Positions 1 through 3,259 of a stretch of DNA of 5,742 nt are shown in pieces. Both the position numbers and the translations under genes were made by a program. This stretch comes from DAOVGU01 sp030637775 [NCBI: bacterium] (GTDB lineage: Bacteria > Ratteibacteria > UBA8468). The stretch lies in NCBI GenBank assembly GCA_030637775.1, contig DAOWFY010000166.1:1-5742 (forward strand). Reading direction: 5' to 3'. Position 1 is the first letter of the stretch; each line of letters opens with the position of its first letter. The notes beneath the pieces were generated by a model. The model was not told the origin of the DNA and did not search any database. It saw nothing but the letters and a program-made list of their open reading frames with translations.

Positions 1-1676
1 ACATCTGAATATTCTATATTTAGATAGGCTAAACCGATGTATTTCTCAGTAAAGGGAGAAAAGGTACCGCTGGTTACCTCCCCAATCCTCTTATTCTTAA
101 ATATAACCGGATAACCTTCCCGGGGAATAGCCCTTTCTGTCATCTCAAAGGAGATGATCCTTTTTCTTAATTTTTTCCTGAGAAGCACTTCTCTACCAAC
201 AAACCAGGGTTTATGGAACTTAACATAGAAACCGGCTCCAGCCTCAATGGGTGAGATATTGAATTTGCCGGCAAGCTCTTTTCCCCAAAGGGGGAATCCG
301 GCCTCGGTTCGGGTTGAATCCCTTGCTCCTAAACCGGCAGGTATTACCCCCAATCCCTCACCTTCTTTTAAAAGCAAATTCCAAATAAGACCACTATCAG
401 CAGAAGAAAGAAAAAGTTCAAAACCTATTTTCTCTCCCGTATAGCCGGCACAGGCAATGATAACTTCTCTCCCGGCAATCGCAGTCTCGATGAATTCTCT
501 TTTCTGTAGTTTTTCCAATCTTCTTAGGCCACCCTCAGCAATAATCCTCTTTAAAACAAGAAGGGAATTTGGTCCTTGCAAGGCAAGTATCGTCTTTTGC
601 TCTTTACCCGCAGATTGCTTACTTAAATTTCTTAAAATAACTTTTTCTTTTATCTCCTTTTGCGGATAATCTTCATCTATCAGATACTGTTTAGAATTGA
701 CCACATTTAGCCAGTTCCAGATTTTTTCCTGATTGATACAATTGCAAACCAAAAGATAATTCTTTCCATTCTTTCGATAAATCATCACATCATCCAAGAC
801 ATCGCCATCCGGATTTAAGACAAAGGAATAAAAGGATTCTTTGTCCTTCAACCACCATACATAGTTGGTAGTAACAATATCCAAAAAACTGGTTGCCCCT
901 TTGCCTTTAATTTCGATAATGCCCATATGCCCGATATCAAAAAGCGCCGCCGTTCTTCTCACCGCCTGATGCTCCTCAATGATGCTCGTATAAAAAATGG
1001 GCATTTCCCAGCCAGCGAAGGGAGAGATTTTCGCTCCTCTCCTCAGATGCTCGGGATAAAGAGGAGTCTTCTTTAATTTACCCTCTTTTTCCTCATAGAA
1101 GAACGCTCTCTTCTTATGATTCTTATGAGGGGAGACGACTTCTTTTAACCTCTTCTGACCGACGAAATATGGTTTGGATAAGGAGAACAATTCGGGATAT
1201 TCCTTATAGATGGTTTTGATATCCTTTCCCCTCTCCTTAATCCTCTCCGGCCATGCCTCACATCTCGGCAGGCGTGCTATACGGTGCTCCTTATTCGTCG
1301 CACCAGCACCCCTCAAGGGGAGTGAGTCCCCCGGAGATAGGTGGGGGTGTAACTTGTCAAATGTAGAGGTCTGACCCCCTATTATTACCGGGCCATTTAT
1401 CTTGGCTAAAATATCCTCATCAAAGATAATGTAGCCATTAGAAAGCTCCTTCAACCAGGACTTTACCAATCTCATTTTTTTGGCATTGCTGCATAAGACA
1501 AGAAAGCCCTTCTCCCTTTTCTTCAAAGTAATGGCATCAAGAAGTATGCCATCCCTATTAAAAAGTAAACTTGACAAAGATTCCCCGGATTTAAGGGAGC
1601 TGATATCAGAGGTAACCACCTGCTGGAGGAAGGTCTCTGCTCTTTTACCGGATATCTTCAATAATCTTTCTGACAT
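1..1676 (-). CDS. gcvT: Aminomethyltransferase (glycine cleavage T protein) with extra N-terminal GcvT/YgfZ-like domain, C-terminus cut by window edge
   Basis: I translated this frame by hand: 558 codons without a stop, running off the left edge. Residues about 200-558 are a nearly complete GcvT, which moves the methylene group of protein-bound aminomethyl-lipoate to tetrahydrofolate and releases ammonia. Landmarks are FAGWEMP (220-226), FDIGHMG (246-252), the conserved DD pair (295-296), YTGE (412-415) and GLGARD (448-453). Cys409 stands where the family usually has Arg before GYTGE. Only some 15-40 C-terminal residues should be missing. Residues 1-100 form a second, half-length GcvT/YgfZ-like domain (LKISGKRAETFLQQVVTSD, then FNRDGILLDA), followed by an odd GC-rich stretch (about 100-142) and a linker with KPYFVGQK (168-175). 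ATG 1676 is chosen because the domain begins at once; AAAGGA precedes it by only 2 bases. It overlaps the end of glyA by 32 bases, suggesting translational coupling. The GcvT call is firm; the role of the front domain is unknown. Confidence 0.9.
   Translation of the reverse strand, partial: MSERLLKISGKRAETFLQQVVTSDISSLKSGESLSSLLFNRDGILLDAITLKKREKGFLVLCSNAKKMRLVKSWLKELSNGYIIFDEDILAKINGPVIIGGQTSTFDKLHPHLSPGDSLPLRGAGATNKEHRIARLPRCEAWPERIKERGKDIKTIYKEYPELFSLSKPYFVGQKRLKEVVSPHKNHKKRAFFYEEKEGKLKKTPLYPEHLRRGAKISPFAGWEMPIFYTSIIEEHQAVRRTAALFDIGHMGIIEIKGKGATSFLDIVTTNYVWWLKDKESFYSFVLNPDGDVLDDVMIYRKNGKNYLLVCNCINQEKIWNWLNVVNSKQYLIDEDYPQKEIKEKVILRNLSKQSAGKEQKTILALQGPNSLLVLKRIIAEGGLRRLEKLQKREFIETAIAGREVIIACAGYTGEKIGFELFLSSADSGLIWNLLLKEGEGLGVIPAGLGARDSTRTEAGFPLWGKELAGKFNISPIEAGAGFYVKFHKPWFVGREVLLRKKLRKRIISFEMTERAIPREGYPVIFKNKRIGEVTSGTFSPFTEKYIGLAYLNIEYSD
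1250..1380. repeat. GC-rich palindromic repeat-like insertion inside the gcvT frame
   Basis: This stretch differs from the AT-rich coding sequence around it and is dense in inverted repeats. On the plus strand they are: GCCATGCC/GGCAGGC with a one-base bulge (1250-1273); GGTGCT/AGCACC (1283-1310); CACCCCT/AGGGGAGTG (1307-1324); CCCCC/GGGGG (1328-1347); and GGTC-t-GACC (1368-1376). The minus-strand end, GGGGTCAGACC followed by TCTACATTTGACA, resembles from memory a sequence dispersed in many environmental genomes near REP-associated transposases. That resemblance is unverified. It encodes about 42 residues (about 100-142 of the GcvT frame) rich in His, Pro, Gly and Arg, without stop or frame change. 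The flanks IINGPV-type and WPERIKERGKDI read as ordinary protein, so I infer an in-frame insertion. The exact ends are uncertain. Confidence 0.6.
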
Positions 1677-3066
1677 CTTCCTTTGCTCTTTGTAAAATCT
1701 CAAAATCGATCTTTCCTCGGGGAATCTCCCCGGTAAGGCCAATATATGAAAATGGCTTAATGTTGGTCAAAATAGCAGCGATAACTTTAGCCAATTTCTT
1801 CATCTCGAGAACTCCGAACTCTCGTTGGGTAACCCACGGGGTGCCAAGTCGAATACCACTGGCTAAAGTGGTAGCTTCGTCTCCAGGGATAGTATTCTTA
1901 TTGGTCACTATTCCGGCAAGATCTAAAATGCGGGCCGCCGGCTCCCCCTTCAGAGGATAGCCATTTCTTCCCTTAATCTTCCTTAGGTCAATTACCAAAA
2001 GATGGGTATTTGTTCCTCCATAGGCCAATTTCAAACCTTCATTCTGCAAAGCAGAGGCTAAAACTTTGCAATTTTCAACTATTCTTTTTTGGAGATGACG
2101 ATATTGTCTTGTCTGGGCAATTTTGAAGGCAACCGCAATTGCGGCAAATTTGTTCACATGAGGTCCTCCCTGCTCTCCCGGAAAGACACTACTCTCAATC
2201 TTTTTTGCCTTTTCCCTATCGGTTGTCAGAATAACTGCCGCCCTGGGTCCACAGATAGTTTTATGGGTGGTAAAGGTAATCACATCGGCATACCCAATAG
2301 GGGTTGGATAGAAACCGGCGATAACCAGACCGGCCGGATGGGCAATATCGGCAAAAAGCAAAGCCCCGCATTTATCGGCAATCTCGCGAAATCTCCGCCA
2401 GTCCGGTGCCCAGGGATAGGAGGTATAGCCAGCAATGAGCATCTTTGGTTTATATCTTAAAGCCAACTTTTCTATCCTTTCATAATTGAGCCTTTCGGTC
2501 TTGGAATCGACCCCATAGGAGACAATATCATACCTTTTGCCTGAACGATTAAACTTGCTTCCGTGGGTTAAATGTCCGCCAACAGTCAGCGCCATTCCCA
2601 TTATTGTATCCCGTGGTTCACAGAAGGCTTCATAGACGCTATTGTTGGCTGCCGCTCCCGAGAGAGGCTGGATATTAACGAAGATATCCTCTGCTCTTGT
2701 TCTATCGGTAGCAAAGCATTTGGCTATTCTTCTCCTGGCTAAAGATTCAATGAAATCGGCATATTCGCAACCCTTATAGAAACGTCGGTTGCCGTAACGG
2801 CGATAATAGGAAAGCTGGTATTCAAAATCAAGTAGTTCCTTCTCCTCCCCTTGATTCATTCTTAAGGCGGGATAGCCCTCGGCATAGATGTTGGTAAAGC
2901 GAGAACCTAAAGCTTCCCTTACCGCTTTTGGGCAGATACTCTCGGAAGGAATAAGAATGACCTTGTCTTTTTGCCTTCTTTCCTCAAAATCAATAATCAG
3001 ACCTGTGTCGGAATCTACCTCGGATAAATCCTTTTTATCAAGCAAATCTTTATATTTCTTTATCAT
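1645..3066 (-). CDS. glyA: Serine hydroxymethyltransferase
   Basis: A 473-residue PLP enzyme that interconverts serine plus tetrahydrofolate with glycine plus 5,10-methylene-tetrahydrofolate in the cytoplasm. Visible motifs are IPSES (39-43, usually xSEN), TNIYAEGYP (58-66), RFYKGCEYADFIESLA (95-110), SGAAANNSVY (136-145), GGHLTHG (163-169), DIAHPAGL (240-247), TTHKT with the PLP-binding Lys269, GPR (273-275) and SGIRLGTP (403-410). It is longer than the usual 415-420 residues, mainly from about 27 extra residues (67-94) between YAEGYP and RFYKG. I recognise this insert from a subgroup of bacterial enzymes. ATG 3066 is the first possible start because an in-frame TAA lies directly before it; no Shine-Dalgarno sequence can be seen. 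A glycine riboswitch lies upstream and gcvT overlaps downstream, so the enzyme probably works in the glycine-to-serine direction here. Confidence 0.95.
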   Translation of the reverse strand: MIKKYKDLLDKKDLSEVDSDTGLIIDFEERRQKDKVILIPSESICPKAVREALGSRFTNIYAEGYPALRMNQGEEKELLDFEYQLSYYRRYGNRRFYKGCEYADFIESLARRRIAKCFATDRTRAEDIFVNIQPLSGAAANNSVYEAFCEPRDTIMGMALTVGGHLTHGSKFNRSGKRYDIVSYGVDSKTERLNYERIEKLALRYKPKMLIAGYTSYPWAPDWRRFREIADKCGALLFADIAHPAGLVIAGFYPTPIGYADVITFTTHKTICGPRAAVILTTDREKAKKIESSVFPGEQGGPHVNKFAAIAVAFKIAQTRQYRHLQKRIVENCKVLASALQNEGLKLAYGGTNTHLLVIDLRKIKGRNGYPLKGEPAARILDLAGIVTNKNTIPGDEATTLASGIRLGTPWVTQREFGVLEMKKLAKVIAAILTNIKPFSYIGLTGEIPRGKIDFEILQRAKEDVRKIIEDIR

Positions 3067-3068
3067 TT

Positions 3069-3100
3069 AAAAATAAAGGGGCATTTCTTTATGCCCCCCT
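3069..3100 (-). terminator. Riboswitch-controlled intrinsic terminator abutting glyA
   Basis: On the minus strand GGGGCAT (3097-3091), loop AAAGAA, and ATGCCCC (3084-3078) form a 7-bp stem. G-U and A-U pairs can extend it to about 10 bp. It is followed by TTTATTTTT (3077-3069). The upstream arm shares its G-run with the closing P1 stem of the second glycine aptamer (CAGGGG, 3101-3096). Forming the aptamer should therefore weaken the terminator, as in the known glycine-activated gcvT leaders. The U-run ends 2 bases before the glyA ATG, leaving no room for a normal ribosome binding site. Confidence 0.85.
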
Positions 3101-3249
3101 GTCCTTTTACCTGAGAGATTTAACCCTTCGGTTTCCCTCCATCGCGGAGAGACCTCTCCAGAGGTTTTTTAGACGGCAGTCCTTTTGCCTGAGAGTTTTT
3201 TGCCCCTTCGGCTCCTCCGCTATTAGAGCGGAAGCCTCTCCCGCCATCT
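3096..3249 (-). promoter_or_regulatory. Tandem (two-aptamer) glycine riboswitch
   Basis: Two glycine aptamers lie head to tail in the glyA leader. Aptamer I (3249-3171) is closed by AGATGGC (3249-3243) pairing with GCCGTCT (3177-3171), with one G-U pair. It contains GGGAGAG, a GC-rich variable hairpin (about 3235-3213), CCGAAGGGGC, and CTCTCAGGCAAAAGGAC. Aptamer II (3164-3096) is closed by CCTCTG (3164-3159) with CAGGGG (3101-3096). It carries GGAGAG, ACCGAAGGG and CTCTCAGGTAAAAGGAC. The linker is six A residues (3170-3165). Both CTCTCAGG-type and AAAAGGAC cores are the family's most conserved parts. Position before glyA-gcvT and overlap of the last P1 with a terminator point to a switch that turns the operon on when glycine is high. 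The sign of the response is inference. Confidence 0.95.
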
Positions 3250-3259
3250 AGATATGAAA

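What the first reader, a model, noticed from the sequence alone, without database searches (positions are those of the whole stretch)
1250..1380. Palindromic mobile-type repeat read as protein inside the GcvT frame
Five inverted repeats crowd into about 130 GC-rich bases within AT-rich coding DNA, and the frame passes through without a stop. One end (GGGGTCAGACC then TCTACATTTGACA) looks like a dispersed repeat known to me from environmental genomes. Inserted repeats normally break genes; here one seems to have added about 42 residues between a domain and its linker. The RNA hairpins could also slow translation or transcription within the operon.
Basis: partly seen in the sequence, partly recalled or inferred. 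Interest (0 to 1): 0.65.

Follow-up and report, generated by a model that had tools for sequence, protein, structure and literature searches.

The report
Translated mobile palindromes inside bacterial genes
A small mobile DNA repeat, itself carrying another repeat, lies inside a gene for a glycine-degrading enzyme in an uncultivated bacterium and is read straight through as extra amino acids; sibling copies sit in the same way inside many other genes, some of them essential.

Summary
Window 1228-1378 (minus strand) is a composite of three dispersed repeats read in frame within gcvT. A (1355-1378) matches the terminal repeats that flank two Y1-tyrosine-transposase genes of this genome. B (1228-1353) is a C-rich nested palindrome. 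C (about 1255-1311) sits inside B. Close named relatives are Candidatus Ratteibacteria. One family relative (G003) has a plain linker at this point and another (G002) has A alone, so the insert was probably built stepwise; it adds about 33-35 residues in a predicted-disordered inter-domain linker.

The wider result concerns B. Of 89 distinct copies examined in four genomes, 49 lie inside long open frames (45 ORFs). A Pfam match runs across the insert in 22 of the 45 ORFs, among them alanyl- and valyl-tRNA synthetase, CarB, GatB, topoisomerase I, peptidyl-tRNA hydrolase, RibD, IspG and RecJ. Internal length is a multiple of three in 41 of 46 intragenic copies against 3 of 12 intergenic ones. 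A, by contrast, is inside an open frame at 0 of 26 other sites.

It works like the Rickettsia palindromic elements; sequence membership is not shown. I call it a new variant of a known kind. The insert is most likely neutral; translation and what moves B are unshown.

The parts
1355..1378 (-). Element A: 24-base terminal repeat of a Y1-transposase element (GGGGTCAGACCTCTACATTTGACA), residues about 100-108 of GcvT
   Evidence: 44 exact pattern matches in the own genome; inverted copies flank both Y1_Tnp genes
1228..1353 (-). Element B: C-rich nested palindrome, residues about 108-150, interrupted by C
   Evidence: dispersed copies
1255..1311 (-). Element C: third repeat lying inside B, residues about 123-141; ends approximate
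   Evidence: separate copies at C53, C136 and C78; B+C together at C65 and three places in G001
3..1676 (-). gcvT (aminomethyltransferase), cut by the contig end; N-terminal GcvT/YgfZ-like half domain, linker with the insert, catalytic domain
   Evidence: TIGR00528 299 bits, cut-off 236
1645..3066 (-). glyA (serine hydroxymethyltransferase), overlapping the start of gcvT in another frame
3095..3259 (-). glycine riboswitch upstream of glyA
   Evidence: RF00504 above gathering score at 3167-3253; two-aptamer model RF03166 at 3095-3259, 65 bits, below its gathering score of 110

Best explanation
The segment is a nested set of small mobile palindromes that is read as part of GcvT. A terminal repeat of a Y1-transposase element (A) came to lie in the linker between the N-terminal half domain and the catalytic domain; a C-rich palindrome (B), carrying a third repeat (C), came to lie at its 3' end. 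Shown: the repeats are dispersed, the frame is kept, one relative has no insert here and another has A only, and B occurs inside many other open frames with its internal length nearly always a multiple of three. Inferred: the insert survives because it lies in a flexible linker and keeps the frame, so the enzyme still works, while copies that break genes are lost. B behaves as selfish DNA with one mostly stop-free, most-used reading frame (such as LHPHLSPPPLRGRIEERG), in the manner of Rickettsia palindromic elements. A is probably moved by its Y1 transposase; what moves B is unknown.
For: Dispersed repeats. Empty and A-only states in G003 and G002. Two Y1_Tnp genes flanked by inverted A copies. 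B inside open frames: 49 of 89 copies, 14 of 22 in the own genome. Pfam match across the insert in 22 of 45 ORFs. Length multiple of three 41 of 46 inside, 3 of 12 between genes. Empty sites for RibD (G002, G003) and GatB (G003). Predicted disorder: GcvT residues 110-140 below pLDDT 50. Variable linker in 18 homologues.
Against: No proof of translation or movement; all genomes are drafts and no reads were seen. Frame test is partly circular: an out-of-frame copy would leave the spanning class; head and tail classes together are 19 of 28 multiples of three, and 5 of 46 spanning copies are not. B has no more open frames than its shuffles. B is somewhat rarer in open frames than random positions (49 of 89 against 2125 of 3109, p 0.009). 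A in G000 and G002 differs in subtype and offset, so one shared A insertion is not proven. 22 of 45 means that in 23 ORFs the insert is not bridged by a Pfam match.
Confidence: 0.9

Rival explanations
1. Assembly artefact: the assembler joined two contigs through a shared repeat, so the insert in gcvT does not exist in the cell.
For: The genome is a 177-contig draft and contigs do end in these repeats: C65 starts inside B+C, C53 starts and C167 ends in B-like matches.
Against: Both flanks belong to one gcvT in the right order, as in G002 and G003, and the frame runs through. The same kind of insert recurs at matching sites in other genomes.
Confidence: 0.04
2. Co-opted insert: the repeat-derived linker now does something useful, for instance spacing the two domains or slowing translation through its RNA hairpins.
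For: Some B inserts are shared between genera at matching places (a glycosyltransferase in G000, G001 and G002); sense-strand folding z -2.70.
Against: The inner part of shared inserts differs between genomes while the frame stays; inserts lie in unrelated proteins; predicted disorder; no terminator-like site.
Confidence: 0.1
3. Decaying gene: gcvT is on its way to a pseudogene and the insert is tolerated for that reason.
For: The glyA-gcvT fusion seen in many other bacteria is split here, and the N-terminal part is only a half domain; the same-genus genome G001 gave no gcvT match.
Against: The catalytic domain is over the TIGR00528 cut-off (299 against 236 bits), the frame is open to the contig end, G003 has the same split, and genes as basic as alanyl-tRNA synthetase carry B in the same way.
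Confidence: 0.04

Closest known systems
Rickettsia and Wolbachia palindromic elements (RPE, WPE)
   Same: Palindromic repeats of about 100-150 bases read in frame inside unrelated genes; one tested enzyme (guanylate kinase) stayed active (passages of PMC2229807, and PMC10969869)
   Different: B is shorter (54-73 bases), C-rich, with other sequence; it is found in a non-rickettsial draft genome and is combined with another repeat; no sequence kinship shown
TIRYT elements (terminal-inverted-repeat tyrosine transposase, 'TIRtrons')
   Same: A flanks Y1-transposase genes as inverted copies and occurs alone or in inverted pairs; GGGGTCAG fits the motif GGGGWSAS (passages of PMC3733652)
   Different: Here one copy of A lies inside a gene; 26 other sites do not lie in open frames
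GTAG/CGTC REPs inside coding regions
   Same: Palindromes reported inside genes of several bacteria (passages of PMC3733652)
   Different: B is longer and starts and ends without those tags
QMITE elements of Coxiella burnetii
   Same: Non-autonomous repeats that overlap or extend reading frames (passages of PMC5896051)
   Different: Longer, mainly at gene ends or between genes; B often lies within conserved domains

Membership tests
RPE/WPE-like coding palindromes (as a kind) | Dispersed palindrome | tested here: met
   (three of four B copies folded have z below -3; L005 only -0.59)
RPE/WPE-like coding palindromes (as a kind) | In-frame presence inside unrelated, conserved genes | tested here: met
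   22 of 45 ORFs have a Pfam match across the insert
RPE/WPE-like coding palindromes (as a kind) | Product is translated and works | not testable with these tools
   needs peptides or enzyme assays
RPE/WPE families proper | Sequence match to an RPE or WPE model | tested here: inconclusive
   No such name in NCBIfam results for 7 of 10 proteins listed in full; for the other 3 only the best 25 rows were shown. That NCBIfam holds RPE/WPE models is recalled
TIRYT terminal repeat (element A) | Inverted copies flank a Y1 tyrosine transposase gene | tested here: met
   both Y1_Tnp genes
TIRYT terminal repeat (element A) | GGGGWSAS motif | tested here: met
   GGGGTCAG (sequence; motif from PMC3733652)
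TIRYT terminal repeat (element A) | Catalytic HUH and tyrosine residues intact | not tested
   Pfam match only, over the cut-off for both
GTAG/CGTC REP (element B) | GTAG or CGTC tag at one end | tested here: not met
   B copies start (G/A)TTACACCCCC and end in a G run
MITE (element B) | Target-site duplication and an autonomous partner with the same ends | not tested
   Flanks were not searched systematically; Y1_Tnp genes found here carry A, not B, at their ends

The most novel reading that the evidence does not exclude
Translated C-rich palindromes are a general and largely undescribed source of new protein segments in uncultivated bacteria: in this lineage they occur inside essential genes almost as often as chance would place them there, persist between genera while their hairpin tips are exchanged in whole codons, and a different palindrome has independently entered the same GcvT linker in another phylum (Thermoflexia, L096).
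Probability: 0.35. Interest if true: 0.75.

Novelty: new variant of a known kind. Interest (0 to 1): 0.55.

Why it matters
Coding palindromes are known mainly from Rickettsia and Wolbachia, and REPs inside genes from several bacteria. Here a large load of in-frame palindromes is seen in draft genomes of a little-studied lineage, in genes such as tRNA synthetases, carbamoyl-phosphate synthase and topoisomerase I. Empty, single and nested states of the same site in related genomes make it possible to test how selfish DNA adds segments to proteins. It also warns annotators that peptides such as LHPHLSPPPLRGRIEERG and its frame variants are repeat-derived, not domains.

Tried and rejected
An exact search for the 24-base A in genome contigs found nothing (the own and near genomes may be left out there), while the own genome holds it. 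I considered that B evolved to be open in all frames: rejected, mean 3.47 open frames of 6 against 3.61 in shuffles, and none of 85 copies open in all six against 3.9% of shuffles. I considered that the A transposase moves B: no support, since the Y1_Tnp genes carry A ends and B copies shown carry A only in gcvT; not excluded. I considered a terminator or promoter role: no terminator-like site, and the two promoter-like sites lie outside the insert. The first GatB alignment picked the wrong frame in G003 and was redone. The Foldseek search listed GcvT and its folate-binding relatives and added nothing on the insert.

Rows dropped and limits: B matches with nhmmer E above 1e-6 were left out before the 89; the C65 copy (L002) fell out in de-duplication. 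G001, G002 and G003 were sampled: loci were fetched for listed, mostly better-scoring copies only. 3 of 49 intragenic copies lacked an anchor in the length test, 4 in the frame tally. A first count of A sites (0 of 25) dropped one site by a script error; the recount is 0 of 26 sites and 0 of 40 single copies. 'Not in an open frame' does not prove that an A site is intergenic. L183 and L166 (two O-antigen-ligase-like frames, 42% identical) carry B at different places and were not counted as shared.

Full report
Setting. The window is contig C29 of a 1.40 Mb draft genome of 177 contigs, 83.5% complete. Two family-level relatives are 100% identical over the compared loci to named records: G003 to PFWI01000068.1, bacterium (Candidatus Ratteibacteria) CG_4_9_14_3_um_filter_41_21, and G002 to DAOVNU010000031.1, bacterium isolate CSMAG_1505. 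I therefore place the host with Candidatus Ratteibacteria; no call names the host itself. The minus strand carries a glycine riboswitch, glyA and gcvT.

The observation. The gcvT frame is open through a GC-rich segment (0.57; 10 of 11 neighbouring windows 0.37-0.44, one 0.515) that folds better than most shuffles on the sense strand (z -2.70). The hairpin count is nearer four than five. The 171-base segment has 54 matches in the genome at E <= 10, which fall mostly on three sub-segments; these define elements A, B and C.

Element A. The degenerate 24-base pattern has 22 forward and 22 reverse exact matches in the own genome, 21 and 20 in G001, 14 and 13 in G002, none in G003 and 3 and 3 in the distant G048; 4 of 61 genomes have it, and the reversed control pattern has none. 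Two genes match Pfam Y1_Tnp, each between inverted A copies. The gcvT copy shares the letters GGGGTCAGACCTCTACATTT with the copies at the C86 transposase. The start GGGGTCAG fits the motif GGGGWSAS of repeats that flank TIRYT genes (passages of PMC3733652). At 26 other sites of the own genome (the transposase sites left out) A never lies in a frame open for 40 residues on both sides: 0 of 26 sites, 0 of 40 single copies.

Element B. Ten copies of 54-73 bases align as a nested palindrome with discrete length classes. A covariance model finds 68, 132, 19 and 138 matches at E <= 1 in G000 to G003; many places count on both strands, and weak ones may be chance. At E <= 1e-4 with stricter filters 15 of 61 genomes have matches: the own, 12 of 34 class relatives and 2 of 26 others. 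Among fetched loci I kept 89 distinct copies: 49 inside frames open for at least 40 residues on both sides, 15 at the head of a frame, 13 at the tail, 12 neither; in the own genome 14 of 22 are inside. Random positions in the same loci give 2125 of 3109, so B is mildly rarer in open frames than chance (p 0.009), while A and B differ sharply in the own genome (0 of 26 against 14 of 22, p 7e-7).

Are these real genes? The 49 copies lie in 45 ORFs, all scanned with Pfam. A domain match runs across an insert in 22 of 45: NAD_binding_1, DHH (RecJ), RibD_C, tRNA-synt_2c (alanyl-tRNA synthetase), FAD_binding_2, Aminotran_1_2, T2SSE, CPSase_L_D3, GatB_N, Mur_ligase, Queuosine_synth, tRNA-synt_1/Anticodon_1 (valyl-tRNA synthetase), GcpE (IspG), PfkB, 5_3_exonuc, Glycos_transf_1, GvpL_GvpF, CobA_CobO_BtuR, Molybdopterin, Topoisom_bac, Pept_tRNA_hydro and MoeA_N. 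In the other 23, GcvT among them, the insert lies between or beside domain matches, or no domain was found (3 ORFs had no Pfam match). In the own genome 7 of 13 ORFs are bridged. Empty sites: RibD in G002 and G003, with a different B variant at the same site in G001; GatB in G003. Alanyl-tRNA synthetase has short loops in G002 and G003 but a longer, different loop in G001. Shared sites: a glycosyltransferase in G000, G001 and G002 and an M28-like protein in G000 and G001. The inner hairpins of the shared glycosyltransferase and RibD inserts differ, so the tip seems to be remodelled while the frame is kept.

Frame test. Between two fixed anchors the element length is a multiple of three in 41 of 46 intragenic copies, 3 of 12 intergenic ones (p 3e-5) and 22 of all 40 non-spanning copies (p 5e-4); lengths inside genes are 36, 39, 45, 48, 54, 57 and 63 rather than one value. 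This points to selection on the frame, with the caveat that the spanning class is itself defined by an open frame. Of 45 intragenic copies placed, 24, 7 and 6 use the three forward frames and 6 and 2 two reverse frames; the most used frame is open in 85% of 85 copies. The element has no more open frames than its shuffles, so it is not built to be read in every frame.

The gcvT site. In the aligned segment the window has 92 residues, G003 57 and G002 59; G002 carries A alone (AAGGGGTCAGGTCTCCACATTTGACAAAATT) and G003 neither A nor B. No gcvT was found in the same-genus genome G001. The likely order is A, then B with C, but A subtypes and offsets differ between G000 and G002. The B+C composite is itself dispersed: at C65:1-120 (98%) it opens a contig in frame with the gene that follows, and G001 has three, one of them inside a long frame that I read as TauE-like, translated from the other strand, the other two not in long frames. 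In the alignment with 18 chosen homologues the linker varies in length and sequence. In the AlphaFold2 model residues 110-140 fall below pLDDT 50, matching the repeat-derived residues 100-150.

A second phylum. In a Thermoflexia genome (L096) the same GcvT linker holds another palindrome, in frame, that folds with z -4.39; a related sequence at the same place in L105 gives z -2.97. The L096 genome has one further near-full copy at 84% and two short matches; the full copy is in frame in a gene that looks like a STAND ATPase just before its P-loop (the label is my reading).

Comparison with print. RPEs are described as 105-146-base palindromes fused in frame in Rickettsia genes, with one tested enzyme still active (passages of PMC2229807; passages of the review PMC10969869). 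REPs within coding regions are reported in several bacteria (passages of PMC3733652); Coxiella MITEs overlap frames (passages of PMC5896051). The original RPE and WPE papers were not read. Listings for Ratteibacteria (5 papers), coding palindromes and in-frame palindromic repeats in uncultivated bacteria showed no title or abstract on such repeats in this lineage; those papers were not read for it.

Verdict. It works like an RPE; membership in the RPE families is not shown. Translation, present mobility and any effect on the enzyme remain unshown.

Noticed in passing
window 1645-1676; L063:643-3693; L066, L073, L096, L105 and others: glyA and gcvT are one fused ORF of about 1000-1330 codons in 22 of 23 loci looked at, but split by overlapping frames in the window and in L064. 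Many of the fused proteins carry an N-terminal GcvT-like half or full domain.
   Followed up: partly
L063 about 2557 (G002 gcvT): A second C-rich palindrome-like insert (LLPIPSPQGRGKERKE) further down the G002 GcvT linker region, absent from the window protein.
   Followed up: partly
G000 C4, C12, C34, C58, C73, C78, C81, C101, C110, C117, C119, C134, C139, C170: A often occurs as inverted pairs 52-203 bases across, like REP doublets.
   Followed up: no
L007, L008, L023: C belongs to a larger family of hairpin-rich repeats with GACGAA-type motifs; their function is unknown.
   Followed up: no
L006 (RecJ), L157 (PolA-like), L222, L230 (valyl-tRNA synthetase): Single genes carry two B copies in frame.
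   Followed up: partly
L249 (G001 alanyl-tRNA synthetase): A longer, different loop (PRPERETVQDSQRLHQ) lies where G000 has B; it may be another repeat.
   Followed up: no
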